Notes under the pieces: model-generated
Told to the model about the DNA's origin: nothing
What the model saw: only the letters and a program-made list of their open reading frames with translations
The model's database searches: none
Source: Bacteroidota bacterium
GTDB lineage: Bacteria > Bacteroidota > Bacteroidia > Chitinophagales > Saprospiraceae
Assembly: GCA_016124585.1 (NCBI GenBank)
Contig: WGNL01000042.1
Location: 1 to 45,927, forward strand
Direction: 5' to 3'
Length of the DNA stretch: 45,927 bases
In this document: positions 1 to 45,927 of the stretch, in pieces
How the letters are laid out: each line of letters opens with the position of its first letter
Position numbering within the stretch: the stretch's first letter is position 1
Position numbers and translations under genes: made by a program

Positions 1-189
1 CAAGGTCGAACCCTGCGGGTTGCTCCCTGCGGTCGCAAACCTTGACACGGCCAATCTACCACTATTTTTCTTGCTGCTAAGCGGTCACTTGACCTCTAGC
101 TGTGCCTTTTCCCCATTTTACACAGTTTATGAAGCAGTACCTGACAATATGGCCTTATCCTCCTTAAATGAACCTCGATTTAGATTGAA
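1..189. other. window edge, no gene supported
   Basis: No convincing gene is seen here. Bases 1-44 can fold: caaggt at the start pairs with accttg at 39-44, and aaccc/gggtt form an inner hairpin. An open frame running rightwards from base 2 has no recognisable protein character and overlaps the antisense side of the next gene. The edge may be the end of a feature lying outside the window. Confidence 0.4.
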
Positions 190-19100: not shown

Positions 19101-21934
19101 GCAGCAATGCAACGAGCTATTCATGGGATTTTGGGGACGGCGGAACCAGCACCAACGCCAACCCAACCCACATTTACGCTACTGACGGCGTCTACAGTGT
19201 TGTGTTGAGCGCTACAAATGCTTGCGGAACGGTGACATCAACGCAAACCGTGACCATTGTGACGCCTCCAATGGCTAATTTCTCTGCAAATACAACGTCA
19301 GGTTGCGCACCATTGACCGTACAGTTCAACAACACTTCGTCCGCTAATGCAACGACTTATGCCTGGTCGTTCCCTGGTGGTTCTCCATCTACCTCTTCTG
19401 CACAAAATCCAAGCGTTAGCTACGCAACGCCTGGCACTTACGATGTAACACTCATTGTATCCAACAGTGCAGGAAGTGACACGACCATGTTTACGAACTA
19501 CATCAACGCACAGGGCCCACCAACGACCGGGTTCACGGTTGCCACCAATGTTTTCGTCGCCAATTTCACCAATACCACTACCAACGGCACTAGCTATAGC
19601 TGGGATTTTGGTGATGGAGGCTCAAGCACCAACGCCAACCCATCGCACACCTACGCTGGCGACGGCGTTTACACAGTGGTTTTGACAGCAACTGGCCCAT
19701 GTGGTACTAGTTCTGCTACACAGCAAGTAACCATCAGTTCGTTACCTGTAGCCGGGTTCTCGGCACCTGAAACGAGCGGTTGCGCCCCATTCACCGTGCA
19801 GTTCCAAGATCAATCGTCTTCAAACACAACGGCTTGGGCTTGGTCATTCCCCGGTGGAACACCTTCCAGTTCAACGGCACAAAACCCAAGTGTAACCTAC
19901 TCAACACCAGGCAGTTACAACGTATCACTTACTGCGACGAACTCCTTGGGCATGAATACGGCGATGCAGACTAACTACATCACGGTTGCGCAAGCACCAA
20001 CTGCAGGGTTCACTAGTACTACTAATGGCCTCACCGCCACTTTCACCAATACAAGCACTGGTGCCACGAGCTACTCTTGGGATTTTGGCGACAGCCAAAA
20101 CAGCAGCCAAGCCAACCCATCGCACACGTACGCTGTAGATGGCACCTACACGGTCGTTTTGACCTCCACAAATGCTTGCGGAATGACGACTTCTACCCAG
20201 ACAGTAGCTGTTTACACTCAACCGACAGCGAATTTTGATGTAAACTTGACCACTGGTTGTTCTCCATTGACGGTGCAGTTCAACAACCAATCTTCTGCCA
20301 ATGCGGAAACCTTCAGTTGGAGCTTCCCAGGCGGCACACCAGCCACCTCCACTGCTGAAAACCCCACTGTAGTTTACAATACCGCAGGCACTTATACCGT
20401 CATGCTGACCGTAAGCAATCCTGCTGGACAAAACACATCTACGCAGACAGACCTTATCGTGGTAAACACAGTGCCAGCAGCTGGCTTTACTTTCACGATA
20501 AATGGTACCACGGCGACATTTGACAACATGACCACAAATGCTACTGGCTACTCTTGGGATTTTGGCGATGGAAGTGCTGCCAACACAGAAACAAACCCAT
20601 CACATACCTATACGACTGATGGGGTTTACGAAGTAACTTTGACGGCTACCAATGAATGCGGCTCCACAGAAATCAATGGTCAATTGACTATCGTGACACC
20701 ACCTACAGCCAGTTTCTCTGCTGCGCAAACAAGCGGTTGCGCTCCGTTGCAAGTAACTTTCAACAATGAATCTTCCGCTAACGCAACGGGCTTTGCCTGG
20801 ACCTTCCCTGGCGGCACACCAGCTACTTCCACGCAACAGAATCCAGTTGTGACTTACAACACGGCCGGTTCTTACGATGTGACCCTCACCGTGACCAATG
20901 CAGCTGGCAATGATTCCTACACATTGACGAACTACGTGACGGTTTCGACTGTGCCTGCTGCAAGCTTCACCACTGCTGTAAACGGTGCTGATGTCACGTT
21001 TACCAATACGACCAGCAATGCGACGAGCTATGTTTGGGACTTCGGTGACGGCGGACACAGCATGGAAGCAAGCCCAAGTTACACCTATACTGCTGACGAT
21101 GTTTATACCGTGACGCTCACGGCTACCAACGAATGCGGCGAATCCGTGGTAACGCATACAGTGGTCATTGCTACATCGGCTCCACAAGCATTTTTCTCCG
21201 CAGAACCAACCACAGGTTGTGCACCGCTGACGGTCACGTTCACCAATGAATCATCTGCCAATTCGGAGACTTTTGCATGGAGCTTCCCTGGCGGGCTTCC
21301 AGCGACTTCTACCGAAATGAACCCAACCGTGACCTATGGTGCTACGGGTAGTTATGCGGTGTCGCTCACGGCCACCAACTCACTAGGTTCTGACACTTAC
21401 GGGCAAATTGGCTATATCGTTGTAAGTGGCGTCCCAACACCTGCGTTCACCACTGCCGCCAACTTTAACGTAGTAGCTTTCACAAACACCAGCACCAATG
21501 CCACGAGCTACGAATGGGATTTTGGTGATGGTTCAGCGACCAGCACAGAGGCAAACCCAACGCATACGTATGCCAATGGTGGCCAGTACACGGTGACTTT
21601 GACTGCCACCAATGACTGTGGTTCTAAGACGGTTACCATCGAAATAACGGTACAGGCCAATGGCACTGAGGACATACCTGGCATCAGCCGCTTCGACGTG
21701 TTCCCGAACCCGAACAGCGGTCGGTTCACATTGATAATGGATGGCGCTCCGCAAACGGAATTTGAATTGAGCTTCACGAATGTGCTCGGCCAACGCCTCC
21801 TCAACGAGAAGGTTGACTTCCGCACAGGTCATCTGACAAAGGATTTTTCATTCAGCCAATTGGCGGCTGGCGTGTACATCCTGCAGGTGAAATCTGGCGA
21901 GAAGGCCATGTTCAAGAAATTGGTGGTTGAGTAA
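16136..21934 (+). CDS. secreted reprolysin-like metalloprotease with 18 PKD domains and T9SS sorting domain
   Basis: A 1932-residue exported protein. The signal peptide MIRFLTSLTLLLCVTAVFA is followed by a propeptide-like region and a metzincin protease domain. The zinc signature HEIGHNFSAQHD starts at residue 348 (His348, Glu349, His352, His358), with FIMQPS as the Met-turn, as in M12B reprolysin-like enzymes. From about 403 to 1840 there are 18 PKD (beta-sandwich) domains as nine pairs: an A type (SGCAPLTV...FPGG) and a B type (WDFGDG...NACGT). B6 has DFGDS instead of DFGDG. The last about 80 residues, starting SRFDVFPNPNSGRF, are a type IX secretion sorting domain. It is therefore likely released or anchored on the surface as a protease on a long stalk. 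Confidence 0.93.
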   Translation: MIRFLTSLTLLLCVTAVFAQKPVFQGTPLKDALQQQAVSDQFYHWEIYQIDAKALSSFTMNAGDESNFHLELGRHDWDIMLQKRDLRSSNYVNSVLTDEGVKSNPANDGIMTYRGQLPNSDGWSVALTLREDFIYGYFEESGETYYIEPLWYFIAEAPKDQFILYPSSAVKPDNGEHKCGALEMQDKMEELNPEEQIKQHGEDAEKMMACVEIELAIAADLSMFNFHGSVSAVNAFTFGVMNDVQTNYDNEFNDELHFNIVEQFVVAPPASDPWTNSNDAGTLLNSFTSWGPGGFTSNHDLGQLWTKRTLNSGTVGIAWVAAVCTSSRYHVVSQFTNSACLLRDMTAHEIGHNFSAQHDAPNSGFIMQPSVTCTNTWSGASLSAINGYYPTRNCLGTCTSSQPPVADFSGTPTSGCNPLVVDFTDLTTNSPVAWSWTFPGGSPSSSTQQNPTVIYANPGTYNVTLVATNLVGSNSVTKTGYITVLASPVASFTWTQAGLTLIFTNTSSNGTTYLWDFGDGNTSTQTNPTHTYAVDGFYDVTLSVTNACGTVSTLTSIPVFVAPTADFTGTPSSGCAPLTVSFVDLSSPNTTSWSWNFPGGNPTSSLQQFPTVTYNSPGSYTVSLTVTNPAGGDNETKNGFITVGSSPTAVDFTSSVNGNTVTFTSSVTNPAGSGPIMYSWDFGDGGTSTLANPTHTYAAGGSYGVTLTVTNSCGSAIKANAVTILVPPVAGFSATNTSGCAPLTVSYTSTSSGANSYAWTFPGGTPGTSAAQNPTVVYNTAGTYNATLIVTNPAGSDTLTQTNFVTVNTTPVAGFTHTVNGTTATFTNTTTNATSYSWDFGDGGTSTNANPTHTYATDGTYTVILSATNACGTVSFTQTVTIETPPTAGFSANNTTGCAPFTVQFNNLSSANATTFAWTFPGGSPSTSTAQNPTVTYSAVGTYTVTLTASNTAGSNTSTQTDYITVNTTPVAGFNSSVNGTTATFTNTSSNATSYSWDFGDGGTSTNANPTHIYATDGVYSVVLSATNACGTVTSTQTVTIVTPPMANFSANTTSGCAPLTVQFNNTSSANATTYAWSFPGGSPSTSSAQNPSVSYATPGTYDVTLIVSNSAGSDTTMFTNYINAQGPPTTGFTVATNVFVANFTNTTTNGTSYSWDFGDGGSSTNANPSHTYAGDGVYTVVLTATGPCGTSSATQQVTISSLPVAGFSAPETSGCAPFTVQFQDQSSSNTTAWAWSFPGGTPSSSTAQNPSVTYSTPGSYNVSLTATNSLGMNTAMQTNYITVAQAPTAGFTSTTNGLTATFTNTSTGATSYSWDFGDSQNSSQANPSHTYAVDGTYTVVLTSTNACGMTTSTQTVAVYTQPTANFDVNLTTGCSPLTVQFNNQSSANAETFSWSFPGGTPATSTAENPTVVYNTAGTYTVMLTVSNPAGQNTSTQTDLIVVNTVPAAGFTFTINGTTATFDNMTTNATGYSWDFGDGSAANTETNPSHTYTTDGVYEVTLTATNECGSTEINGQLTIVTPPTASFSAAQTSGCAPLQVTFNNESSANATGFAWTFPGGTPATSTQQNPVVTYNTAGSYDVTLTVTNAAGNDSYTLTNYVTVSTVPAASFTTAVNGADVTFTNTTSNATSYVWDFGDGGHSMEASPSYTYTADDVYTVTLTATNECGESVVTHTVVIATSAPQAFFSAEPTTGCAPLTVTFTNESSANSETFAWSFPGGLPATSTEMNPTVTYGATGSYAVSLTATNSLGSDTYGQIGYIVVSGVPTPAFTTAANFNVVAFTNTSTNATSYEWDFGDGSATSTEANPTHTYANGGQYTVTLTATNDCGSKTVTIEITVQANGTEDIPGISRFDVFPNPNSGRFTLIMDGAPQTEFELSFTNVLGQRLLNEKVDFRTGHLTKDFSFSQLAAGVYILQVKSGEKAMFKKLVVE
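17342..21660 (+). repeat. nine ~480-bp coding repeats (A/B PKD pairs)
   Basis: The PKD region is built of nine tandem units of roughly 480 bp, each coding for one FPGG-type and one DFGDG-type PKD domain. Nucleotide similarity is strongest in the middle units around 18580-20200 (for example repeated tgggattttggggacgg), indicating recent duplication or conversion there, with the first and last units more diverged. Confidence 0.8.
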
Positions 21935-32930: not shown

Positions 32931-33328
32931 GTCCACATAAAGCCACTCAACCCCTTGATTTTCAATCTATTTAAACATAATCCTAATTTTTATCTGCAAA
33001 ATAGCTGTTACAGAATTGTAAGGCTTTGTAGTTTTGCACCTCACTTACGCCGATAGACTTTAGAACAAAATACATCTACTCCCTTCCACACCCGTATCGG
33101 CGGTCTCACAGTTTGGTCTCCATTTTTAAACAAAACTTTAAGGCTACAGGCTTCGCAAAGCTCAATGCCTAAAGGCTTTTCACTCACTTCGGCACAGGTC
33201 TAACGCCGGTCATTTCACATTTAATTTTTCGGTAAAAAAACGCCACAAAACTGCTGCGCTGCTTGCGCTGTCTGGCTTTGTTTGGTGCTGCAATACAATT
33301 CTTAAACCTGTTAACAAAAACAAACGCT
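32931..33328. other. intergenic leader of the giant T9SS gene
   Basis: No gene is seen in these 398 bases. TAGTTTTG at 33029-33036 matches the -7 consensus and would give a leader of roughly 285 bases; no TTTG -33 box accompanies it. The frame upstream of the chosen start at 33329 stays open to 33263 but lacks a signal sequence. Confidence 0.4.
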
Positions 33329-36300
33329 ATGCGCATTCAACATTACCTGTCCTGCTTGTGCCTGCTCCTGCTTGGGGTGGTCAACTTGCAAGCCCAGACG
33401 CAGTATATCGGCCCCGACAACGGGAGTTGGTTCACTGCTGCGAACTGGAACAACGGCCTCCCTGCCGCTGGTAACGACGCCCTCATCGGGGGTGGCGTGA
33501 CCGTCGCTGTAGGCAGCCCGCTGACCGTGAATTTTGGGGTAACGGCCTTCGGCAATATCTCCGCCACGGCTGCCATTACCATCGCCTCGGGTGGCAACAT
33601 TTCCAACTCTGGAACCCTGACCATTGCCAGCACCAGCAGCCTTACCAACAACGGCACGCTGTCGAATTTCGGCACGCTGACCTTCAACGGCACGGCTGGC
33701 TTCACCAACGGGGCAGGTGCCAATTTCACCAACGGCGGCAGCTTTACCCTCCAAACGACACTGGTCAACAGCGGTGCCATCACCAACAATGGCACAATCG
33801 ACGCCACCAACGGGACCCTCCAATCCGGTGGCACTTTCGACAACAACCAGACCCTCACGACCAAGTCGCTGACCATCAACGCCAGCAGCACGTTTACCAA
33901 CAACTTCGGTGCGACGGTGAACATCACGGGCGCTACGGGTGTGTTTCAGGTGAACGGCAACGTGACCAACAACGGCATCATCAACGCCTCCGGCGCAATG
34001 ACCGTGAACGGAAATTTTGCGAACAACGTGAGCCTGAATGTAACGGCAAACTCCGTTTTGACGGTGAACGCTGGTGCTCAATTGAACAACGGCGGCACGG
34101 TTGACAACAGCGGTTTTGTGCAGAACTACGGCACTTTAACCAACGGTCAGAACTTCGTGAACAGGGGAGAGGCGAACAACTTCGCTACTTTCAACAACAA
34201 CAACCTGATTGACAACAAGACAGGAGCTACTTTCTACAACCGTGCTGGCGGAACGCTAGGCATGGGCTTTGGCTCAAAAATCTCAAATGCTGGTACGTTC
34301 AACAACCTGAGTGACATCAATAGCTTTGGTACCATCGAAAACAACGGAACCTATACCAACAGCGGCAATTTGCTTAGCTTCGGCGGCTCACTGCTTGATA
34401 ACAATTCCACATTTACCAATTCAGGAAGCATCAGCACCAACGACGTGGTGAGCAACGATGGCTCATTTACCAACTCAGGAACCATCAACGTGAACGGTGG
34501 CTCCGTTTGGTCGAACAATGCCAGTTTCACCAACGCCGTGGGTGGCACAGTGAACGTGGTACAGGATTTTGTAAACAATGCAACTGGAACGCTGACCAAC
34601 AATGGTACTTTTCGCAATACGGTCCGCACCCAGAATTTGGGCAGTTTCGTAAACAACGCCTACCTGCATAACCCTGGCGACTTCACTAATTCGGCTGGTG
34701 GTACGTTGACTAACAACGAACTTTTCCTACTGGAAGCGGGCAACCTGCTGAATGCGGGGGCTTTCGTCAACAAGAACAAAACCCTGTCCGATGAATGCTC
34801 TTCCATCAAAAACACGGGCAGCATCAACAACACAGGTGGCAACCTCGAAATCCGTGGTATTTTCTTCCAGAAAGGAACTTTGACAGGTAATGCCGTGAAC
34901 AATACGGGCGGCTACACCCACACGGGCGCTACCTCCGATGCACCAACAGTTTGCCAAAACGGTACTTTCGGTGCGAATATCGACGGCGACATCAAGGTGT
35001 ACGCCAACGCCATTGTGGCTTTTGAAAACTTCGATAGCTGCGCCAACATTGTGTATTTGGCCAACGGCATCGCACGTCCGGTTTTCCATTGTTCCGACAT
35101 TCCTACAGTGCAAAACGTGAATCTCGTCATCCGCACCCGCCTCGGCGACTCGTTGACTTGCGTGGCCCAAGTTACGCCTGTTGACTTGCTCGAACCACAA
35201 ATCGCTGCTTGCCCGAAAGACCAAGTAATTTTTACACCAAACCCAACTGCCACGGCCACTTGGACAGCGCCTACGGCAAGCGACAACTGCTCTTCCACCG
35301 TCAGTGTTACCTCAACCCACAATCCCGGCGCTAGTTTCCCAGTAGGAATCACAGGCGTTACCTACACTTTCAAAGACCAATACAACAACCAGAACCAGTG
35401 CCAATTCCGCATTGATGTTCGGCAGACACCTCCGGGCAGCAACTGTACGGGGGACACTGCTGGACCTACTTTCACAGGTTGCCCAACGAACCAGACCATT
35501 CAGCAGTTGGGTATTTTGACCCCAGCTAGCTGGACTCCACCGACTCCGAACGACAACTGCAAGCCCATCAATTTGACCAGCACTCATGTGCCGGGCCAAG
35601 GCTTCCCAGTTGGTACGACGACAGTGACCTATACCGCCAAAGACGGTAGCAACAACAGCAGCACTTGTACTTTCACGATTAAAGTGAACGCTGTTGACCC
35701 ATGTTTGGAAGACACACAGAAACCTGTTATCTCAGGCTGCCCAGCCAATATCTGGCTGCCGACAAACACAGCCATCAATGGCGCAGTGGCCATTTGGTCT
35801 GCTCCGGGCGCTGGCGACAACTGCGGCGTGACCAGCCTTACTGCCTCGCATGTTCCCGGCAATGTTTACCCAGTTGGAACAACCACAGTAACCTACACGG
35901 CCAAGGATGCAGCAAACAATACGGCCACTTGCAGCTTCACCATTACGGTTGGAGCTGACCCATGCCCCGGCGACGTGACAGCGCCCGCTATCAGTGGCTG
36001 CCCATCGAATATCAGCTTGCTGACTACGGGTAATACTGCGACTGCCACCTGGACTGCACCTACTGCGACTGACAACTGCGCACCAGTGACTGTGAATGCT
36101 ACCCACACTTCAGGGAGCACATTTGGCTTGGGTTCTACCCCAGTGACTTACCAGTTTTCGGATAAAAAAGGAAACAAGAGCACTTGCACCTTCACGGTGA
36201 CGGTTCAGAACAGCTGTTCAGCTGACAACGTACCGCCAGTGATTACAGGTTGCCCTTCGAATATCACCGTTGCAGCAGTAGGTGCAAGCGGAGCGACAGC

Positions 36301-39300
36301 CACTTGGACGGCTCCTACGGCGACTGACAACTGTTCCTTGACCAGCTTTACTTCTTCTTATCTGCCAGGTGCAAATTTCCCATTGGGGGTTACGACCGTT
36401 GTTTACACAGCGATTGACTTACAGGGAAATGCCAGCAACTGTAGCTTCAATGTGGCTGTGGTGAGTGCACCAAACTGCACCACGAACGCTGCGCCGATCA
36501 ACAACACAACGGGCGTTGACCCTGCATCTGTAGCACTTTCTTGGACAACGGCTGCCAACGCCTCCAGCTACGATGTTTACCTTGGCACTGCCAATCCCCC
36601 AACGACAGTTGCTGTGGCAAACGTGAGCGGAACTTCTACCACGGTGACGAACCTTGCTGCTGGTACGACTTACTACTGGTTTGTAGTTCCAAAAAATGCA
36701 GCTGGAAGTGCGACGGGATGTTCATCTTCTGTCACCAATTTCTCCACCGCTGGCTCCAATGGAGGCGGCCCAGGCTCCTGCAATGTGACCACTGGAAGCA
36801 TCGTGCGGGAAGTTTGGAACACCAATACTTGGAACCTGAATGATATTGATGGTTTCGGCAATCCGAACAACACCGTCAACCTGACGCAATTTGCCATTAC
36901 AAGCACCGAAAACGGAACCAATTACTCGGACAGGGTACGTGGATACTTGGTGCCTTCGCAAACTGGTAACTACCGTTTCAATGTAACTGGCGATGATTAC
37001 ACTGAACTGTTCTTGAGCAGCAGTGCCAACCCAGCCAACAAGCAAAAAATTGCTTACCACTACGGCTACACTGGCACCACGGAATACAATAAATATTCAA
37101 CCCAAACTTCTTCCACTGTCGCACTGACGGCAGGTGAGATTTACTATGTCGAGCTACGTCACTTGGAAGGTGGCGGTGCTGACCACTTCCGGGTGAGTTG
37201 GAAGACGCCATCGAACAGCAACTGGAACATCGTGCCTGGTTCAAAACTGGCACCTTACACGGACATCATTTCGCCAAATGCAGTTTGCCAAAACTTGACG
37301 CTGCAGCTCACAGCAACAGGCCAATCCGTACAAATCAGCGGCCAACAAGTGGACAACGGCTCTACTCCCGGCTGTGGCGCTACTTTCACGAGCATGAATG
37401 TCTCTCCAACGAGCTTCAGCCAGCCTGGCACTTACACCGTGACGTTGAAAGTGACAAACTCCTTCGGTCTATCTTCTACCTGTACTTCCACGGTAACGGT
37501 TTTGGCACCACCATGCAATTCTTCCGTAACCGCTTGGAATTTCACGAAAGTGGATGGCACTACTTTGTTTGCACTGGTAAATAATGGCAGCTACACCACT
37601 ACCTCGCTGCCTAGCTCATACAATATTGAGGCACTGGTGAGCGGCAGCGCAGAGAGCGTAAAATTCACGCTCAGCGGCCCTGTGAGCATGACCACGACTG
37701 AAAACTTTGTGCCTTACCATGTTGCTGCTACTGGTGGTTCTATGACGCTGACACCGGGTACTTACACATTGAACGCAAAACTGTACAGCCAAGACAATGC
37801 GCAAGGAACGCTTTGCAACGAAACAACGATTACTTTCAAAATCGTTGCGCCTTGCTCCGTTACCAACACCGTTTGCGAAGCAAACGTGAACAACGGTGGC
37901 TGGTACACCCTGTCCAACTGCACACTGAGTGTAAGCGCAGGCGATGATGTGAAACTCTCCGTGAACCCGAACGGCTTGGCCTCCTACCAGTGGAGCGGCC
38001 CGAACGGCTACACAGCTACTGGGAACAACGGTGGTGACGCCATGATTTCCAACAGCATTACTGCTGCACAAGCTGGCACTTACACCGTAACCATGACCGA
38101 TGCCAACGGTTGCACAGCAGCCAAAAGCATCGCCGTGTCAGTGTGCTCAATGGGCGCTACCGTTTGCGAAGCGAACATCAACAATACTGGCTGGCAGGTT
38201 CTGAACAACTGTGCTATTTCAGTTTGCACAGGCGACAACGTGGTGCTTTCCGTGAATCCGAATGGTTTGGCTTCCTACCAATGGAGCGGCCCAGGCGGCT
38301 ACACAGCTAATGGCAACAGTGGTGGCGACGCCTTAATTTCAAGCAGCATCACAACGGCCAAAGCAGGTACCTATACCGTGACGATGACAGATGCGGGCGG
38401 TTGTACAGCAGTAGCCAGCATTAATTTGACCGTTACAGCTTGCTCAGCTTGCTCAGACAATTTGTTGGTAAATGAAGGTTTTGAAAACGGCACCGCGGGT
38501 TGGACTTGGATGCAAAACGCTGGCACTACGACCTCTTCTCCTTTTGCTGGCGCAAAATCGTTGTCCATCTGCTCTGGTTCTGGTGGCATTTCGCAAGGGT
38601 TGCCTGTACTGCCGGGTGAGACCTACACGCTGAAGGTTTACGCTAAAATCTCCGGTGCATCTGCATCTGTGGGTATCCGTTTCTATGATTCCAACTGGAA
38701 CGAGGTAGGCGTGCCTTCTGTATCCGTAAATTCAACGAGCTACAAACTCTACACTGTGAGCGGAACAGCTCCTGTGAACGCTGCTTACGTGGAAGCTTGG
38801 GCTTGGAAAAACAACAACGGTTGTTTCTACGCCGATGCATTCTGCCTTTCCAGCACAGCGGGCTTCCCTGCTTGCTCGAACAGCGTATTGGCTAACGAAA
38901 ACCCAGGCTTTGAATACAATTTCAATAACTGGGATTGGACTTCAAATGCTAGCATCACTTCTACTTCCCACAGCGGAAGCAAAGGTGCCAAAGTTTGCAC
39001 GAGCTGGAACGGTGGCGGTGCAGGCAATCAAGTATTGGCCACACCGGGTGCTACCTACAGCCTTCAGCTTTGGGCGCAAATCTCAGGGTCACCAAACTGG
39101 GCAGGTGCGGGCATGGCCTTCTACGATGCCAACTGGCACAAGATAGGCGGTGACATCAGCCGCACCATCACTTCGAACGATTGGGCGCTTTACCTCATTC
39201 AGGGTGTGGCACCTATCAATGCCAAATACGTTGACTTCTGGTTCTGGAAAGACGCTGGTGGATGCATGTACGTGGATGATTTCTGCGCTACTTCTACTGG

Positions 39301-40261
39301 TGGTGGCTGCGACAACGACGTACTTTTCGTAGTCGGTAGCACTTGGCTGAACTCTGGTGATGCTTGGGTGAAAAACAGGCTCGAACAACTCGGCTTGGAC
39401 GTCACCGTGAAAAGCGCCAACTACGTTTCCACTTCGGACGCCAATGGCAAGGGCCTTGTGGTCATCAGTTCTACCATCAACTCTGGCGATGTAACGGGCA
39501 AGTTCAAGAACGTAGCAGTGCCCGTGGTTACTTGGGAAAGTTACATCCTGGACGATATGAAAATGACAGGCTCCGTAGCACAGACCGACTATGGTCAAAA
39601 TTCCAGCTACAACAGCATCACCATCACCGACCCAAGCCACCCACTGGCGGCAGGCTTGAGCGGTACGGTCAAAGTGTTGGAATGGAGTTCTTGGTTCCGT
39701 TGGGGCTGGACGACACAATCCAGCGCAGCGAAAGTCGCCAAAGTAGCAGGTCAGGAAGCTTGGTACGGCATCTTCGGTTTCGACAAAGGCCAAGCCATGC
39801 AAGGCGGGTTTATTGCCCCTGAGCGTCGGGTAAGCCTCTTCATGGATGACGAAACTCCGGCTTACCTTACTTCTGATGGAAAGAAGCTTTTCGACAATGC
39901 TATCGAATGGGCAATCCGTTGCCACCTGGCTAGCGCCACTGGCAGTGAACTAGCCGTGCGCAATGGCGAAGCCGCCGACCATTTGACGCCAATAGCACCT
40001 AACGCTTCTGTACAAGTGTTCCCGAACCCAGCCGAGGACAGAATCTTCGTGGAATTCGGTGAAGGCTACAACAACGATGCTGCCAATATCCGCCTGTTCG
40101 ACATCAATGGAAAAGCCATCAAAGAGTGGGAAATGGAAACAAGTGGTGACTCCATCGAGCTTCCGCTTGATGGGTTGCGCAGCGGCCAATACTTGCTCTG
40201 GATTGCTGTTGATGGCAAAGCGCCGATTTCGAAGCGAATCGTTGTGGCTACGACGAAATAA
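33329..40261 (+). CDS. giant multidomain T9SS-secreted protein (HYR, Fn3, PA14, carbohydrate-binding-like)
   Basis: A 2310-residue exported protein. The start at 33329 opens the signal peptide MRIQHYLSCLCLLLLGVVN. Residues about 30-525 are an Asn/Gly/Thr-rich repeat (phrases such as NNGTLTN, FTNSGSI) that looks like a beta-helix. Five HYR domains follow at about 618-1048 (each with a PxIsGCPxN start), then an Fn3 domain (about 1050-1143), a PA14 domain (about 1158-1311, with YRFNVTGDDYTELFL), a PKD/HYR-like unit, two near-identical Ig-like units (LASYQWSGP...GGDA, about 1508-1708), two carbohydrate-binding-like beta sandwiches (NEGFENGTAGW and NPGFEYNFNNW), a Rossmann-like ThuA/amidotransferase-type domain (about 1993-2200), and a C-terminal sorting domain (VQVFPNPAEDRIFVEFG). 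It is probably a surface adhesin or glycan-binding protein. Confidence 0.9.
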   Translation: MRIQHYLSCLCLLLLGVVNLQAQTQYIGPDNGSWFTAANWNNGLPAAGNDALIGGGVTVAVGSPLTVNFGVTAFGNISATAAITIASGGNISNSGTLTIASTSSLTNNGTLSNFGTLTFNGTAGFTNGAGANFTNGGSFTLQTTLVNSGAITNNGTIDATNGTLQSGGTFDNNQTLTTKSLTINASSTFTNNFGATVNITGATGVFQVNGNVTNNGIINASGAMTVNGNFANNVSLNVTANSVLTVNAGAQLNNGGTVDNSGFVQNYGTLTNGQNFVNRGEANNFATFNNNNLIDNKTGATFYNRAGGTLGMGFGSKISNAGTFNNLSDINSFGTIENNGTYTNSGNLLSFGGSLLDNNSTFTNSGSISTNDVVSNDGSFTNSGTINVNGGSVWSNNASFTNAVGGTVNVVQDFVNNATGTLTNNGTFRNTVRTQNLGSFVNNAYLHNPGDFTNSAGGTLTNNELFLLEAGNLLNAGAFVNKNKTLSDECSSIKNTGSINNTGGNLEIRGIFFQKGTLTGNAVNNTGGYTHTGATSDAPTVCQNGTFGANIDGDIKVYANAIVAFENFDSCANIVYLANGIARPVFHCSDIPTVQNVNLVIRTRLGDSLTCVAQVTPVDLLEPQIAACPKDQVIFTPNPTATATWTAPTASDNCSSTVSVTSTHNPGASFPVGITGVTYTFKDQYNNQNQCQFRIDVRQTPPGSNCTGDTAGPTFTGCPTNQTIQQLGILTPASWTPPTPNDNCKPINLTSTHVPGQGFPVGTTTVTYTAKDGSNNSSTCTFTIKVNAVDPCLEDTQKPVISGCPANIWLPTNTAINGAVAIWSAPGAGDNCGVTSLTASHVPGNVYPVGTTTVTYTAKDAANNTATCSFTITVGADPCPGDVTAPAISGCPSNISLLTTGNTATATWTAPTATDNCAPVTVNATHTSGSTFGLGSTPVTYQFSDKKGNKSTCTFTVTVQNSCSADNVPPVITGCPSNITVAAVGASGATATWTAPTATDNCSLTSFTSSYLPGANFPLGVTTVVYTAIDLQGNASNCSFNVAVVSAPNCTTNAAPINNTTGVDPASVALSWTTAANASSYDVYLGTANPPTTVAVANVSGTSTTVTNLAAGTTYYWFVVPKNAAGSATGCSSSVTNFSTAGSNGGGPGSCNVTTGSIVREVWNTNTWNLNDIDGFGNPNNTVNLTQFAITSTENGTNYSDRVRGYLVPSQTGNYRFNVTGDDYTELFLSSSANPANKQKIAYHYGYTGTTEYNKYSTQTSSTVALTAGEIYYVELRHLEGGGADHFRVSWKTPSNSNWNIVPGSKLAPYTDIISPNAVCQNLTLQLTATGQSVQISGQQVDNGSTPGCGATFTSMNVSPTSFSQPGTYTVTLKVTNSFGLSSTCTSTVTVLAPPCNSSVTAWNFTKVDGTTLFALVNNGSYTTTSLPSSYNIEALVSGSAESVKFTLSGPVSMTTTENFVPYHVAATGGSMTLTPGTYTLNAKLYSQDNAQGTLCNETTITFKIVAPCSVTNTVCEANVNNGGWYTLSNCTLSVSAGDDVKLSVNPNGLASYQWSGPNGYTATGNNGGDAMISNSITAAQAGTYTVTMTDANGCTAAKSIAVSVCSMGATVCEANINNTGWQVLNNCAISVCTGDNVVLSVNPNGLASYQWSGPGGYTANGNSGGDALISSSITTAKAGTYTVTMTDAGGCTAVASINLTVTACSACSDNLLVNEGFENGTAGWTWMQNAGTTTSSPFAGAKSLSICSGSGGISQGLPVLPGETYTLKVYAKISGASASVGIRFYDSNWNEVGVPSVSVNSTSYKLYTVSGTAPVNAAYVEAWAWKNNNGCFYADAFCLSSTAGFPACSNSVLANENPGFEYNFNNWDWTSNASITSTSHSGSKGAKVCTSWNGGGAGNQVLATPGATYSLQLWAQISGSPNWAGAGMAFYDANWHKIGGDISRTITSNDWALYLIQGVAPINAKYVDFWFWKDAGGCMYVDDFCATSTGGGCDNDVLFVVGSTWLNSGDAWVKNRLEQLGLDVTVKSANYVSTSDANGKGLVVISSTINSGDVTGKFKNVAVPVVTWESYILDDMKMTGSVAQTDYGQNSSYNSITITDPSHPLAAGLSGTVKVLEWSSWFRWGWTTQSSAAKVAKVAGQEAWYGIFGFDKGQAMQGGFIAPERRVSLFMDDETPAYLTSDGKKLFDNAIEWAIRCHLASATGSELAVRNGEAADHLTPIAPNASVQVFPNPAEDRIFVEFGEGYNNDAANIRLFDINGKAIKEWEMETSGDSIELPLDGLRSGQYLLWIAVDGKAPISKRIVVATTK
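33560..34900 (+). repeat. coding low-complexity Asn/Gly/Thr repeat
   Basis: The N-terminal third of the giant gene consists of short imperfect units of about 30-45 bp rich in aacaacggc and accaac, coding for NNG-type strands and turns. The irregular unit length suggests a beta-solenoid under loose selection. Confidence 0.7.
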
Positions 40262-41135: not shown

Positions 41136-42689
41136 TTACTTCTCCACTTTATTCCCATTAAACAGGATATGCCTGCTGGCGCAAAGCCGGACCCGGTCGT
41201 CCACCCGGTCTTTTCGTTTCACGAAATACCAATCCGATTGCGCCTTTTCGGGTGTCAGCGTCAGCAGTAGGTAGCCGTGGTGTACGAGGTCCAGGTACCG
41301 AAGGTGCGGATTATTTTTTTTCTTTTTGAAACGGCGCTTGGCCTCCGACGCCACAATTTTGGGCACCACTTCATCAAAATTGAAGGAAGTGATGCTTGGC
41401 GTCACAAACTCCGCACCGACCACGCCCTTGCCCGTTTTACAGTCATAGACATTGGGGTCGGCAGGATTCCCCGTCAAATCAAAGGCCCAGGAAGTATGCA
41501 CGTCACCCGTTACGACGACGATATTTTTTAGGTCGTTTTTATAAATAAAATCAAAGATATGCTGTCGCTCAGCGGGGTAGCCATCCCAACGGTCCATGCG
41601 GACAGAAGGACGGCGGTCGAACACCTTGCTGTCGTTCAGTTGGCTGAACACGACTTGATTGCCCACGATTTTCCAGCGTGCCTGGGTGTTTTTCATGCCG
41701 TTCAGCAGCCAATCCGTCTGTTCTGTGCCGAGCATGTGCCGATTTGGGTCGTTCAAGGCAGGGTCGTTTGGGCCATTCGCTTGTTTGCTGCGGCCTTCCA
41801 GGCGACCGTCGAGCATCCAGAGTTCCGCTAGTTTGCCGAAGGAAAAACTCCGCACAATCCGCCGCTCCGGGTTCTCCCGGATGGGCATCCACTCGAAATA
41901 TGCCTGCTTGGCGGCGGCCTTCCGGGCCTCCCAATTGGCCGTTCCGCTCTCCGCACCGTTCACGTAGTCGTTATTGGCCACCTCGTGGTCGTCCCAGATG
42001 ACGATGAACGGATGCAGCCGGTGGCACTCCCGCAACTGCGGGTCGAGGCGGTACTGTCCGTAGCGGGTGCGGTAATCCATCAGTTCCGTGCAGTTTTTAT
42101 CGGGGATGTGCTCCCGGTAGCGGTGCTTCATCATGCGCTTGCGGCCATTGCGCCATACGCCGTATTCGTAGATATAATCGCCGAGGTGCAGCACCGCATC
42201 CAGGTTTTGTTGCTTCGCAATATGGCCAAATGCATTGTAGTACCCGCCCTGGTAATCCGCACAACTGACGACTGCCAGGCGCAACTGGTCGCTGTTTTGC
42301 GAAGCAGTCTTCGTGCGCCCGATGGGAGAGTATTTGTCCTTGTGCTTGAAGCGGTAGAAATACGTGGTGCCGGGCTCCAGGTTTTTCACATCCACTTTCA
42401 CCGTGAAGGCCGAGGTGCCGTAGGTATATTCCTCGCCCGTTTGCACGAGGTTTTGCATGGCAGAATCGCTGGCCATTTCCCATTTCACCAGTTCCGGTAG
42501 CTTGCTGTCGAGGTAGAGTTTCGTCCAGATGACGACGGCATCGGGCAGGGGGTCGCCACTGGCCACACCAAAGTCGAAAGGGGCCAAGTCAGGGGCGGCG
42601 AGCGCTTTCAGTTCTGGATAAAACCATTCCTGGGCCTGGGCTTTTGGCAAAAAAAACAGGAGTAGCAATAAGGGACGGAGTGAGTTCAT
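41136..42689 (-). CDS. PhoD-like alkaline phosphatase/phosphodiesterase
   Basis: A 517-residue exported metallophosphatase with signal peptide MNSLRPLLLLLFFLPKAQAQ. An N-terminal PhoD_N-type Ig domain (FDFGVASGDPLPDAVVIWTK through PGTTYFYRF) is followed by the catalytic domain: VVSCADYQGGYYNAFGHIAK, the metal motif LHLGDYIYEYG, FIVIWDDHEVANNDY and VVVTGDVHTSWAFDL. PhoD enzymes use Fe3+/Ca2+ to release phosphate from phosphodiesters and wall teichoic-type polymers; here periplasmic phosphate scavenging is the likely role. No Tat signal is visible, unlike Bacillus PhoD, so Sec export is predicted. Confidence 0.92.
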   Translation of the reverse strand: MNSLRPLLLLLFFLPKAQAQEWFYPELKALAAPDLAPFDFGVASGDPLPDAVVIWTKLYLDSKLPELVKWEMASDSAMQNLVQTGEEYTYGTSAFTVKVDVKNLEPGTTYFYRFKHKDKYSPIGRTKTASQNSDQLRLAVVSCADYQGGYYNAFGHIAKQQNLDAVLHLGDYIYEYGVWRNGRKRMMKHRYREHIPDKNCTELMDYRTRYGQYRLDPQLRECHRLHPFIVIWDDHEVANNDYVNGAESGTANWEARKAAAKQAYFEWMPIRENPERRIVRSFSFGKLAELWMLDGRLEGRSKQANGPNDPALNDPNRHMLGTEQTDWLLNGMKNTQARWKIVGNQVVFSQLNDSKVFDRRPSVRMDRWDGYPAERQHIFDFIYKNDLKNIVVVTGDVHTSWAFDLTGNPADPNVYDCKTGKGVVGAEFVTPSITSFNFDEVVPKIVASEAKRRFKKKKNNPHLRYLDLVHHGYLLLTLTPEKAQSDWYFVKRKDRVDDRVRLCASRHILFNGNKVEK

Positions 42690-42718: not shown

Positions 42719-42763
42719 AGTTGGCAGTGTGCAGTTGGCAGTTGGCAGCCGGGGAAATACCTT
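42719..42763 (+). repeat. 45-bp direct repeat, copy 1
   Basis: Identical over 45 bases to 43694-43738. The unit contains internal ttggcag iterations (agttggcag three times). The copies bracket the beta-barrel gene. Confidence 0.9.
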
Positions 42764-42765
42764 TG
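42758..42765 (+). promoter_or_regulatory. possible -7 box for the beta-barrel gene
   Basis: TACCTTTG at the right edge of direct-repeat copy 1 matches TAnnTTTG, with GTTG 20 bases upstream. In copy 2 the same place reads TACCTTGG, which breaks the match. Confidence 0.4.
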
Positions 42766-42839
42766 ACCTATGCCAAATCTTGAATTTCCCTTTACCTTGC
42801 GCCATCAATTGGAATAATCAACACCTAAATCCTTTCTCC

Positions 42840-43688
42840 ATGAAAAAGTTATTGACGCTCTGCCTTGTCGCCGCCCTGCTGCCCTATGCCCTGATGGCAC
42901 AAAGCAGCAAAAAGAAAAAAGGCACTTCCATCCTTGCCTCCACCAGTTTTAACTACTACTCCCCATTGAAACCCTACACCTTCAGCAAGAGGTACTTCGC
43001 ACAGTACAATGATCTCAACCTCGTCTTTATCACCCATAATTCCGGCACCTTCACCATTGAGGAAGGCGACTCCGTCCTCCTAACCCGCACGGTGACGAGC
43101 AAGATGCCCAGCAACCTAGTTGGAATAGGTGCAAGCGTTCAGTTCCGGAACCTGAAGAATGTCTATCACGAACTGTCCATCACAAAACTTTCTTTTTCAA
43201 AATCAACCCATTTGACAGGCTACGAGGGACTCATCCCCACGGGAGGCACTTTCTATCTACCTGTGAGCTACAATGAAAAGACCTTTGCCTTTGCCCTTCG
43301 TTATGAGTTGGGCAAATATTTTGGAAGAAGCAAGAACGCACCGCTCCGCTTCGGCATCAGCGGCGGTATCGAACCGAGCTATTACACTTATCATTACCTG
43401 CCACGCACCTCGTCGGATTTTCCCCTCGATGCAAAGCTCCTCACCATTGACCTATCGCTCATTCCCATGCTCTCTGCCAAAATATCCAAGCACCTCTCCC
43501 TCGACTTCAAGTTTATCCCAAACTTCCTTATGGCGGATTTTGGCAATATGAAGCAGAACGACCCCTTCCTTACCAAAAGCCAACGAGGTGGCACCCGAAT
43601 CTACAAAAGCCCTGACATCACCTGGGCTTTCAGCGTACAACTGCGCTATATGGTAAAGGAAGCGAAGAAGCAGCGGGGAAAGGAGTAG
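42840..43688 (+). CDS. outer-membrane beta-barrel protein
   Basis: A 282-residue exported protein with signal peptide MKKLLTLCLVAALLPYALMA, chosen as the start at 42840. The mature part has alternating amphipathic strands ending in aromatic residues (TFAFALRYELGKYFGRSKNA, LRFGISGGIEPSYYTYHYLP, LSLDFKFIPNFLMADFGN) and the final strand ITWAFSVQLRYMV, as expected for an 8- to 12-stranded barrel. It has no recognised family beyond the general OmpX/OprF-like barrel type. It is divergent from the PhoD-like gene and flanked by direct repeats. Confidence 0.75.
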   Translation: MKKLLTLCLVAALLPYALMAQSSKKKKGTSILASTSFNYYSPLKPYTFSKRYFAQYNDLNLVFITHNSGTFTIEEGDSVLLTRTVTSKMPSNLVGIGASVQFRNLKNVYHELSITKLSFSKSTHLTGYEGLIPTGGTFYLPVSYNEKTFAFALRYELGKYFGRSKNAPLRFGISGGIEPSYYTYHYLPRTSSDFPLDAKLLTIDLSLIPMLSAKISKHLSLDFKFIPNFLMADFGNMKQNDPFLTKSQRGGTRIYKSPDITWAFSVQLRYMVKEAKKQRGKE

Positions 43689-43693
43689 ATAGA

Positions 43694-43738
43694 AGTTGGC
43701 AGTGTGCAGTTGGCAGTTGGCAGCCGGGGAAATACCTT
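43694..43738 (+). repeat. 45-bp direct repeat, copy 2
   Basis: Second copy of the 42719-42763 repeat, six bases after the stop of the beta-barrel gene. Confidence 0.9.
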
Positions 43739-44087
43739 GGCATGGCCCAATGCCCCAATGATAAATACCCCATGACAAAAGCCCAAAACGACCGTTCCGT
43801 AAATCATTCCTACCGTTCCGTAAATGGTGTCGGAATATTTTTGTTTTCCTGCGGCTTTTTTGCTTACCTTTCTAGCACCAAAAGCGGCCAAGAATAGTAG
43901 TTGGTTGGATGCGATGAATGACCCTTGAAAACGACAAGTGAACACCCGATGCTTACCTGTTGATTTTCACACACGATTAGAAGTTTGGTGGCAGTGCTCT
44001 TGGTAAAACGGTGGGATGACTGCCGTGGAATGGGCTGTCTTCTTGCTGACGGACGTTAGGACGGGAGCGGGAATCTGTATAGGATGT
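43739..44087. other. gene-free spacer with a 21-bp-spaced direct repeat
   Basis: No gene is supported; minus-strand open frames here look random. accgttccgtaaat occurs at 43791-43804 and again at 43812-43825, exactly 21 bp apart (two helical turns), which could be a tandem protein-binding site, but no start codon lies near. Confidence 0.45.
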
Positions 44088-44147
44088 GGATTGACGCATT
44101 GCATGTTTTGGATAGTCGGTTATATAAAACATGTAATGCGTCAATCC
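44088..44147. repeat. 22-bp inverted repeat before the LRR gene
   Basis: Bases 44088-44109 and 44126-44147 are reverse complements at 21 of 22 positions (core attgacgcattgcatgtttt), with a 16-base loop. It sits immediately left of the 12-bp boundary repeat at 44149. Confidence 0.8.
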
Positions 44148-44148
44148 G

Positions 44149-44160
44149 GTGTTGTGCTCA
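44149..44160 (+). repeat. 12-bp boundary repeat left of the LRR gene
   Basis: gtgttgtgctca here is the exact reverse complement of tgagcacaacac at 45041-45052. The pair brackets the AT-rich LRR gene 19 bases before its start and 11 bases after its stop. Confidence 0.75.
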
Positions 44161-44178
44161 ATTAAATCAATAATAAAA

Positions 44179-45030
44179 ATGAACAATCTCAGTCTGATAA
44201 TTTTCGGAATTCTAATAATCCTAACTTCATGTAACATTCAAGAAAGTGAAGTTCCAAAGGAAAAAGGGCATAATGATATTAATATTCAACAATACATAAA
44301 AAAAGATAAAAATGGTAACAAGACAGTTAATTTATCTAAGCTGGAATTAAAGTCAATACCTGAAAGTGTTTTCTTAATAGACTCTTTGTTTTCGTTGAAC
44401 ATCAGCCATAATAATATTTCTGAATTGCCAAAGAAATTATTCGAACTTAAACACCTTAATCACTTATATGCTGGTGACAACGACATTCATGAACTGCCAA
44501 AAGAAATAGGAAAACTTAAAAATCTTCAGACACTAAGTCTGTCGGAAAATAAAATTAAGAATATTCCAAAAGAAATTGGGGAATTATCCAAACTTCAAGA
44601 AATAACGATGAATTACAATGAAATTACAATTATACCTGATGAGATAGGGCAAAATAAAAGCTTGAAATTTTTACACATGCATCATAATCCAATAAAAAAA
44701 CTCCCTGAAACGGCTTGCAATCTTGACAGTCTGCTTAGGATATACTTGTTCTCAACAGAAATTGAAGAATTGCCAGACTGTATTGGTGAACTAAAGGAGC
44801 TAATTCATGTGGAATTTATGGATAACAATTTAAGAGAGATACCAGAATCTATAACTAATTGCGTTAACTTGATGTCCCTCAAACTTAGAGATAATAAGAT
44901 AAGGAGTATGCCAAAAGACATCGGTCGTTTACAAAAAATAGTATACCTCGAATTAGACGGAAATCCAATTTCTGAATCTGAAAAGCAAAGAATAAAAAAG
45001 GTTTTTCCAAAAAAAAATGTCAAATTTTAA
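44179..45030 (+). CDS. leucine-rich-repeat lipoprotein
   Basis: A 283-residue protein from MNNLSLIIFGILIILTSC, a lipoprotein signal with lipobox LTSC. After a short polar linker it carries about nine LRR units of 22-24 residues with the consensus LxxLxxLxLxxNxIxxIPxxIGxL: for example LNISHNNISELPKKLFELKH, LYAGDNDIHELPKEIGKLKN and LSLSENKIKNIPKEIGELSK. This is the Leu-rich type of the PRAME/intraphilin-like bacterial class. The solenoid is a protein-binding surface; the partner is unknown. The gene is strikingly AT-rich compared with the rest of the window, and it is bracketed by inverted repeats, suggesting acquisition by transfer. Confidence 0.88.
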   Translation: MNNLSLIIFGILIILTSCNIQESEVPKEKGHNDINIQQYIKKDKNGNKTVNLSKLELKSIPESVFLIDSLFSLNISHNNISELPKKLFELKHLNHLYAGDNDIHELPKEIGKLKNLQTLSLSENKIKNIPKEIGELSKLQEITMNYNEITIIPDEIGQNKSLKFLHMHHNPIKKLPETACNLDSLLRIYLFSTEIEELPDCIGELKELIHVEFMDNNLREIPESITNCVNLMSLKLRDNKIRSMPKDIGRLQKIVYLELDGNPISESEKQRIKKVFPKKNVKF

Positions 45031-45040
45031 AAATGAAAAC

Positions 45041-45098
45041 TGAGCACAACACTGCGCCAGCACCCATACCCAGCAAAAGCTGGGCACGGCGCCGGCGC
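45041..45098 (+). repeat. boundary repeat plus stem-loop right of the LRR gene
   Basis: The 12-bp repeat tgagcacaacac (45041-45052) is followed by a two-part stem: gcgccagc (45054-45061) with gccggcgc (45091-45098), and cccagc (45069-45074) with gctggg (45079-45084) around an aaaa loop. The paired-box structure is reminiscent of an integron attC site, but a matching GTT-ending box on the right is missing. There is no T-run. Confidence 0.55.
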
Positions 45099-45140
45099 TA
45101 ACCGTCATCCACAAAAAACAACATCAAAACCAACATCACC

Positions 45141-45485
45141 ATGTCCCAAACCCTAGACGAAATAGAAATCACGCCCAACACCCAAAAGCGTTTTTCGAGG
45201 TGGTCATTGGTGTGCTCGCTAATCAATATAGGGCTTGTAGGTTATTTATTAATAAGGGTTCAAAAAACAATCAACGCCACTGCGCCACCCATAAAGCCTT
45301 CTATACTATTTACATTTTTATTTCATGGCTTTATTTTCACTGGAATAATTATGACCATATTGAGCTTTACCAGAAAAGAGCCTTCAACTTGGGCCAAGTA
45401 TTTTGGAGGAAGCATGAATCTAATCATATTCCTGTTGATTGAGGGCGCTGTATTATATTTCTACATCATAAACCTGAGCAGATAG
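45141..45485 (+). CDS. small membrane protein, function unknown
   Basis: A 114-residue protein not recognised. It has three hydrophobic segments: about 21-39 (WSLVCSLINIGLVGYLLI), 52-73 (SILFTFLFHGFIFTGIIMTI) and 90-110 (GSMNLIIFLLIEGAVLYFYI), with an acidic cytoplasmic N-terminus MSQTLDEIEITPNTQKRF. It lies just after the cassette-like LRR gene and may belong to the same accessory patch. A frame open to the right of its stop leads into the tandem array but is in a different phase. Confidence 0.6.
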   Translation: MSQTLDEIEITPNTQKRFSRWSLVCSLINIGLVGYLLIRVQKTINATAPPIKPSILFTFLFHGFIFTGIIMTILSFTRKEPSTWAKYFGGSMNLIIFLLIEGAVLYFYIINLSR

Positions 45486-45814
45486 CAAGCATTTTCCCAA
45501 AAACACCAGGGCAAACGGCCCTGCAAACACCACTTAAACGCATCGAAGGGCTGGGCGAGTCTCGGAAAATCCTTTCCCAGACTAAGAAAGGGTCGTCAGA
45601 GTTTAAAAAGACCCTTTCAGAGTTTAAGAAAGGGTCGTCAGAGTTTAAAAAGACCCTTTCAGAGTTTAAGAAAGGGTCGTCAGAGTTTAAGAAGACCCTT
45701 TCAGAGTTTAAGAAAGGGTCGTCAGAGTTTAAGAAGACCCTTTCAGAGTTTAAGAAAGGGTCGTCAGAGTCTCTGACGGCCTATGGTTGGGAGACTGCTT
45801 CAAAAAGTGTGTAA
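45443..45814 (+). other. open frame without ATG across the tandem array
   Basis: A reading frame with no stop runs from 45443 to the TAA at 45812-45814 (123 codons) through the array. In this frame each 21-bp half-unit is exactly seven residues (EFKKTLS or EFKKGSS), and copies differ only by synonymous Lys codons (aaa/aag). There is no ATG, and the frame overlaps the end of the preceding gene, so expression would need a non-ATG start or a frameshift. Confidence 0.3.
45586..45778. repeat. 42-bp tandem array with internal palindromes
   Basis: gaaagggtc occurs at 45586, 45628, 45670, 45712 and 45754, exactly 42 bp apart. Its reverse complement gaccctttc occurs at 45610, 45652, 45694 and 45736. 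Both halves share tcagagtttaa, so the array is 21-bp half-units of alternating orientation in their core. The last copy ends in a perfect hairpin, cgtcagag-t-ctctgacg (45762-45778). Any transcript would fold into a chain of 9-bp stems. Confidence 0.9.
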
Positions 45815-45822
45815 ATTAAATT

Positions 45823-45927
45823 TCAAATTTTTATTCCCAGCCTGTCCGGGAAAAGTGCGTCAAACTGTAGGAGGATGACCTTTGCGTTGGCAATTTTTCC
45901 GGCCCATATCTCGGCCGTGTGCTGCAC
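45823..45927 (-). CDS. partial C-terminus of a minus-strand protein
   Basis: A minus-strand frame enters from the window edge and ends with TGA at 45823-45825. The 35 codons read like protein (AEIWAGKIANAKVILLQFDA, then LFPDRLGIKI). No family is recognised, and the start lies outside the window. Confidence 0.35.
   Translation of the reverse strand: MQHTAEIWAGKIANAKVILLQFDALFPDRLGIKI

What the first reader, a model, noticed from the sequence alone, without database searches (positions are those of the whole stretch)
45443..45814. Tandem array that is both a chain of RNA hairpins and a perfect heptad-coding frame
Seen: five gaaagggtc and four gaccctttc elements alternate in 21-bp half-units (42-bp period), ending in a perfect hairpin. 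The same DNA is open in one frame giving EFKKTLS/EFKKGSS heptads, and the only variation between copies is a synonymous Lys codon in that frame. There is no ATG. 21 bp is also two helical turns, so a DNA-binding array is possible. Whether it is a peptide, a structured RNA or a DNA site array is open.
Basis: partly seen in the sequence, partly recalled or inferred. Interest (0 to 1): 0.7.

Follow-up and report, generated by a model that had tools for sequence, protein, structure and literature searches.

The report
Orphaned 21-bp dyad array beside IS
A run of 21-base DNA repeats with inverted cores belongs to a class of arrays that sit in front of one family of bacterial genes, mostly spaced by two turns of the DNA helix but with different words at most genes, which points to a control element kept by its geometry rather than to a peptide.

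Summary
The array is real, but it is 45583-45770 (nine 21-bp half-units, 4.5 x 42 bp). The reading frame is a by-product: no ATG, its stop lies inside a mobile-element end (45791-45927), and homologous arrays in a same-genus genome break it. There the homologous arrays precede two copies of a ~205-aa gene. The window genome's closest copy lies at the end of another contig, cut at codon 8 by the other end of the same element. Of 50 genes of this family, 34 carry an upstream array at lags 20-22, 40-43 or 60-64 bp. Control genes: 3 of 733 as first drawn, 7 of 835 with stretches I had left out added back, 12 of 1085 with everything (Fisher ~1e-42). The fundamental period is 21 bp in 30 of 37 arrays, with different words. 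29 of 37 match their own reverse complement better than at least 57 of 60 column-permuted controls. There is no codon-position signal, no G.U bias and no strand preference in folding. Best reading: a DNA-level, two-turn-phased dyad array upstream of a gene family, orphaned here by an insertion. Each of the element's five inferred copies has such an array within 161 bp. What reads the array is unknown.

The parts
45583..45770 (.). Tandem array: nine 21-bp half-units alternating TAAGAAAGGGTCGTCAGAGTT and TAA(A/G)AAGACCCTTTCAGAGTT; 42-bp period, core inverted between neighbouring half-units
   Evidence: no second match in the own genome; homologous in register to arrays L042 and L048 of G008
45541..45582 (.). 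Possibly two degenerate half-units at the left edge of the array
   Evidence: by eye in the same 21-bp register; about 11-12 of 21 matches each; weak
45762..45778 (.). Terminal perfect 7-bp stem, loop GTC
   Evidence: sequence
45771..45790 (.). Flank homologous to the array-to-ATG spacer of the G008 genes, broken off by the insertion
   Evidence: three-way alignment
45791..45927 (.). Right end of an insertion-sequence-like element (also at the ends of contigs C8, C9, C10, C45); an ORF end on the - strand at 45826-45927
   Evidence: family not determined
1..141 (.). Left end of another copy of the same element; the contig lies between two copies
45443..45811 (+).

Best explanation
The array is the upstream cis-element of one gene of a multi-copy family (about 205 aa, probably helical N-half and fibronectin-III-like C-half, function unknown), severed from its gene by an insertion element. 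Such elements are arrays of dyad-symmetric DNA units spaced mostly by two helical turns. Loci differ in their words; period, dyad symmetry and position before the gene are kept. Shown: position, period, dyads and independence from reading frame. Shown by homology only, since the junction is not assembled: that this array belonged to the truncated gene on contig C10. Inferred: that it acts as double-stranded DNA. The most likely action is that a dimeric or shape-reading protein loads side by side on one face of the helix upstream of the gene and sets its expression. Units are copied along the array by slippage or conversion, so the word drifts in concert while the spacing is held by selection.
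For: Upstream 600 bp of 50 family genes, chosen by protein profile: 35 reach a lag identity of 0.55 over 84 b, 34 of them at lags 20-22/40-43/60-64. Controls in that lag class: 3 of 733 as first drawn, 7 of 835 with the G008 stretches I had left out, 12 of 1085 with every fetched 20-kb stretch and the window (Fisher about 1e-42 for the last two). The link is seen in G606 and G669, which are kin only at phylum level. Downstream of 25 family genes: one array in the lag class. Another multi-copy family has none at 6 further members. Fundamental lag 21 in 30 of 37, 20 in 3. Dyads: 24 of 37 beat all 60 column permutations, 29 of 37 at least 57. Strand-neutral: G.T 283 v A.C 335; gene strand folds better in 21 of 37. 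Homologous arrays keep the 21-bp register, with paired changes AAGGGT/ACCCTT to ATGGGT/ACCCAT between window and L048. L059/L061: identity 56/117 above the array, 147/193 in it, 190/267 from array to ATG; one gap of exactly 21 in the array.
Against: No binding protein is known, and different words at different genes are hard to reconcile with one sequence-specific binder. 16 of 50 family genes lack an array in this lag class (15 at any lag). Arrays also stand before genes outside the family: 12 in the widest control, among them L110, L131, L132 and L140. A recognisable Bacteroidota promoter (consensus recalled) within 320 bases of the ATG was found in 3 of 50, so for most loci it is not shown that the array lies outside the leader. 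L026 (46 bp) and L050/L213 (41 bp) deviate from 21. Several family genes are close paralogues (L042/L048, L204/L205, L216/L217). The core inversion is lost in L042. 8 of 37 arrays show no clear dyad excess. No expression data.
Confidence: 0.5

Rival explanations
1. The array is transcribed and works as a chain of RNA hairpins, as a leader or as a separate repeat RNA bound by the gene product, in the manner of type III toxin-antitoxin loci.
For: Arrays fold better than column-permuted versions (median z -3.2 and -3.5 on the two strands). They lie before a ~200-aa gene; in L042, L048 and L043 the best window ends 71-120 bp from the ATG.
Against: No strand preference in folding (21 of 37). No excess of G.T over A.C mismatches (283 v 335). 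In L059/L061 a conserved promoter-like block lies between array and gene. A two-turn period is not expected of RNA. No PADLOC match for 8 neighbouring proteins, 4 of them family members.
Confidence: 0.2
2. The arrays are neutral by-products of slippage and hairpin-templated repair in long intergenic stretches, and merely tolerated.
For: Words differ between loci; L059 and L061 differ by one whole unit. Quasi-palindrome correction (recalled) would make inverted cores. In L062/L202 the best match (71%, 267 b) lies mostly below the array. Arrays also stand before some unrelated genes.
Against: Strong tie to one gene family and to its upstream side; near-constant 21-bp period across different words; array more conserved than the DNA above it in L059/L061.
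Confidence: 0.17
3. The arrays are landing or recombination sites: dyads that extrude as hairpins and are used by mobile elements, and the gene family travels with them.
For: 5 of 10 flanks of the element in this genome lie within 161 bp of an array, one for each inferred copy, against one array in 800 kb of own sequence not chosen for arrays. REP palindromes are reported as IS targets (PMC1525189, title and start of abstract seen).
Against: No end of this element was found in any G008 stretch read, though the homologous arrays are there. Arrays occur far beyond this element.
Confidence: 0.1
4. The array encodes a heptad-repeat (coiled-coil) peptide.
For: Open frame with one synonymous variant. 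L063 shows a third-position tendency (p 0.05). L068 has an ATG-started 90-aa ORF over its array; L071 has one by eye.
Against: No start and a stop inside the mobile element here; stops in homologous frames; combined codon-position p 0.985 over 28 arrays; arrays of 20, 41 and 46 bp do not keep a frame.
Confidence: 0.03

Closest known systems
BIME / REP arrays (alternating palindromic units; targets of some IS)
   Same: Short units in alternating orientation between genes, with insertion elements nearby (PMC2817692, PMC1525189: titles and starts of abstracts seen).
   Different: REPs share one sequence in many copies per genome. This array's sequence occurs once in its genome, and the arrays go with one gene family.
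Type III toxin-antitoxin loci (ToxIN, CptIN, TenpIN)
   Same: A tandem repeat array before a gene of about 200 aa; repeat lengths of some 34-44 nt (recalled).
   Different: Dyad symmetry without strand preference, two-turn period, arrays up to 437 bp from the ATG, no PADLOC match.
Operator arrays and iterons (helically phased protein sites; recalled)
   Same: Direct repeats spaced by about two helical turns so that proteins can load on one face.
   Different: Those share a word set by one protein; here the geometry is common and the words differ.
Cyanobacterial STRR heptanucleotide repeats (recalled)
   Same: Short tandem repeats in intergenic DNA; 21 = 3 x 7.
   Different: The best lag was 7 in none of the 50 family upstreams, and dyads are present.

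Membership tests
BIME / REP | Same palindromic unit dispersed in many copies in the genome | tested here: not met
   Array DNA matches only itself in the own genome; TAAGAAAGGG 13 times in 6.6 Mb, 5 of them in the array
BIME / REP | Units in alternating orientation | tested here: met
   In the window array; dyad excess in 29 of 37 arrays
BIME / REP | RAYT transposase in the genome | not tested
   -
Type III toxin-antitoxin | Repeat array directly upstream of the gene | tested here: met
   34 of 50 upstream regions; distances 1 to 437 bp
Type III toxin-antitoxin | Toxin of the ToxN/AbiQ fold | tested here: inconclusive
   No PADLOC match for 8 proteins, 4 of them family members; Pfam on 20 members gives fn3 for 3 and two single weak matches; structure model failed (mean pLDDT 36.8)
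Type III toxin-antitoxin | Repeat RNA made and cleaved by the toxin | not testable with these tools
   No expression data
Heptad-coding repeat gene | Frame conserved, third positions most variable | tested here: not met
CRISPR array | Conserved repeats separated by unique spacers | tested here: not met
   21-bp units without spacers
Known structured RNA | Match to an Rfam family above its gathering score | tested here: not met
   43700-45927: seven matches at E up to 1, all below the gathering score
IS256/Mutator element at 45791 | PF00872 transposase in the genome | tested here: inconclusive
   No PF00872 match in the assembly, but the element's interior is not assembled
Phased A-tract curvature | A+T content oscillating at 10.5 bp | tested here: not met
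   Combined p 0.43 over 29 arrays

The most novel reading that the evidence does not exclude
A class of bacterial control element defined by geometry, not sequence: dyad units every two helical turns, renewed as a locus-specific word, kept upstream of one fast-evolving gene family in more than one class of the phylum. Possibly each gene product, or a shape-reading protein, recognises its own array, so that word and reader change together, and a resident mobile element homes to these arrays.
Probability: 0.35. Interest if true: 0.9.

Novelty: categorically new. Interest (0 to 1): 0.72.

Why it matters
Regulatory DNA is normally found by shared sequence. This class escapes that, because little is shared but spacing, symmetry and neighbour gene, yet the association is very strong. 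It gives a concrete, testable case of cis-elements conserved by geometry under sequence turnover. It marks an unnamed protein family as specially regulated, and it offers a natural set of about 35 arrays for finding what reads them.

Tried and rejected
Peptide: rejected by stops in homologous frames, units of 20/41/46 bp and the mod-3 test. Intrinsic curvature: no 10.5-bp A+T signal. A purine/pyrimidine wave of period 21 is present but weak against a neighbour-sequence control (p 0.02). Rfam: nothing above gathering. PADLOC and NCBIfam: no match or only weak ones far below the cut-offs; PHROGs: weak matches to families of unknown function. I first took the element at 45791 for IS256-like; PF00872 was not found and the name was dropped. 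Promoter test: 3 of 50, inconclusive. Structure of the gene product: failed, pLDDT 36.8, so no fold search was run. Phage and plasmid records: no match to 45480-45830. Genome-contig scan: only the two genes of Saprospiraceae bacterium UBA6168. A second protein family as generaliser: its query member L081 has a weak lag-63 array, the 6 others none; kept as a negative control. My first control set left out nine G008 stretches, some of which hold arrays at non-family genes, and held one family gene; the redrawn controls raise the control count from 3 of 733 to 7 of 835 and 12 of 1085 and leave the conclusion standing. Literature: nine searches; only listings and starts of abstracts were seen, no paper was opened; no listed title or abstract start describes such arrays; most subscription journals are not in that library.

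Full report
What is in the window. The window is one whole contig (C44) of a 45-contig genome. The array is 45583-45770: nine 21-bp half-units, 4.5 copies of 42 bp, 99% alike. A perfect 7-bp stem follows, and at 45791 begins a sequence that is repeated at the ends of four other contigs. The contig starts with the other end of the same element. Five left ends and five right ends were found in the assembly, so I infer five copies. Three pairs of flanks share an 8-bp target duplication, two exactly and one in seven of eight bases. The element's interior was not found and its family is undetermined.

A homologous array and its gene. A DNA search of 60 genomes (the own one and 59 relatives) found a 71% match over 166 bases in a same-genus genome, G008, later named by another route as Saprospiraceae bacterium UBA6168. 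There the array lies between relatives (by eye, from the ORF lists) of two window genes, 41136-42689 and 42729-43688, and a 205-aa gene. A 90%-identical second copy of that gene in G008 has its own array. Aligned, the window array and both G008 arrays keep one 21-bp register and alignable edges: window TTTAAGAAAGGGTCGTCAGAG / TTTAAAAAGACCCTTTCAGAG, L048 TTTAAACATGGGTACTTTGAG / TTTAACTCTACCCATTTTGAG, L042 TTTAAGAAAGGGTATTC(T/C)TA(G/C). Window and L048 invert the core between half-units and differ by matching changes on both sides; L042 has lost the inversion. The closest gene in the window's own genome (64% identical) lies at the end of contig C10, cut at codon 8 by the left end of the element. 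The duplications at the window end and at the C10 end do not match, nor do those at the C8 and C6 ends, so a small deletion or recombination must be assumed. That C44 and C10 were once adjacent rests on homology of array and gene, not on a sequenced junction.

The class. The first eight proteins gave a profile; 20 members gave a better one. Pfam sees fn3 weakly in 3 of these 20 (best E 1.7e-4) and two single other weak matches; 'helical N-half' rests on a low-confidence model. Searches covered 398 and 298 genomes of the taxonomic family and 395 of the phylum; many of the weaker hits are the C-half alone inside long proteins and were not used. I kept 51 genes; one (L044) had only 45 bases upstream, leaving 50. 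Left out: the C10 gene (upstream replaced by the element), L052, G181:C148, and partial or contig-edge hits; G000:C30 (L225) was also left out, and has an array at lag 21, identity 0.62. The very first member was found through its array, the others by protein. Upstream 600 bases were scanned at all lags from 6 to 63. At identity 0.55 over 84 bases, 35 of 50 pass, 34 of them at lags 20-22, 40-43 or 60-64. Controls are upstreams of ORFs of at least 150 aa in G000, G008, G006, G202 and G242. As first drawn, 27 of 734 passed and 3 were in the lag class; one of the 734 was a family gene. With the nine G008 stretches that I had left out, 37 of 835 pass and 7 are in class; with every fetched 20-kb stretch and the window, including those picked for element ends or arrays, 52 of 1085 and 12. 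Fisher p is 3.5e-42 and 1.1e-42 for these. Downstream of 25 family genes, four have a repeat, one of them in class. Another multi-copy family has no array at 6 members besides its query, whose own array is weak (lag 63).

Properties. The fundamental lag is 21 in 30 of 37 arrays, window included, 20 in three and 22 in one weak case; L026 repeats at 46, L050 and L213 at 41. This set was cut out at chosen lags (20-22, 40-43, 46, 60-64), but the scan of all lags gives the same picture. 24 of 37 arrays match their own reverse complement better than all 60 column permutations, 29 of 37 better than at least 57. An earlier set of 21 arrays gave 12 above all 100 permutations. Words differ between most loci by eye. 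Codon-position test over 28 arrays: combined p 0.985. Mismatches at the best dyad register: G.T 283, A.C 335. Folding against column-permuted arrays: median z -3.2 on the gene strand and -3.5 on the other, gene strand better in 21 of 37. No 10.5-bp A+T wave over 29 arrays (p 0.43).

Constraint. The pair L059/L061 from two genomes has one gap of exactly 21 bases within the array. Identity is 56/117 above the array, 147/193 in it and 190/267 from array to ATG. In the pair L062/L202 the aligned stretch lies mostly below the array. So words turn over at some loci and are kept at others.

Element bias. 5 of 10 element flanks lie within 161 bp of an array, one for each inferred copy. In 800 kb of own sequence not chosen for arrays there is one array, and 0.11% of that sequence lies within about 300 bp of it. 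No end of the element was found in the G008 stretches read, homologous arrays included, so the array is probably older than the insertion here.

Reading. The peptide is excluded as a class property. The data fit a DNA-level array of dyads phased by two helical turns better than a strand-specific RNA. Binding by a protein on one face is inference. The promoter evidence is thin: 3 of 50, with a conserved block between array and gene in L059/L061. RNA hairpins, a tolerated mutational product and a mobile-element target remain as rivals.

Noticed in passing
window 1-141 and 45791-45927; contigs C6, C8, C9, C10, C25, C28, C45: Insertion element of undetermined family with ends GAGACTGCTTC / GGTACTGCTTC and 8-bp target duplications; each of its five inferred copies has a 21-bp array on one side.
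   Followed up: partly
L131:6026-6388: A 21-bp array (0.94 identity) before a gene pair beginning with an ATPase-like protein that may be a defence operon (guess from recall, not searched).
   Followed up: no
L063:112-544: Array next to the element whose + frame reads AEINIDR-like heptads with a tendency to third-position variation (p 0.05); may be an exceptional coding array.
   Followed up: partly
L110:5046-5314: 42-bp array 35 bp before a 373-aa gene with a CarboxypepD_reg domain, outside the main gene family.
   Followed up: no
L006:1130-1458: Repeats of 8 bp (CTCTCAAA) in both orientations between two genes in another same-genus genome; a different repeat type.
   Followed up: no
window 16136-21934 and 33263-40261: Two very long ORFs (1932 and 2332 aa) that look by eye like secreted repeat proteins.
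   Followed up: no
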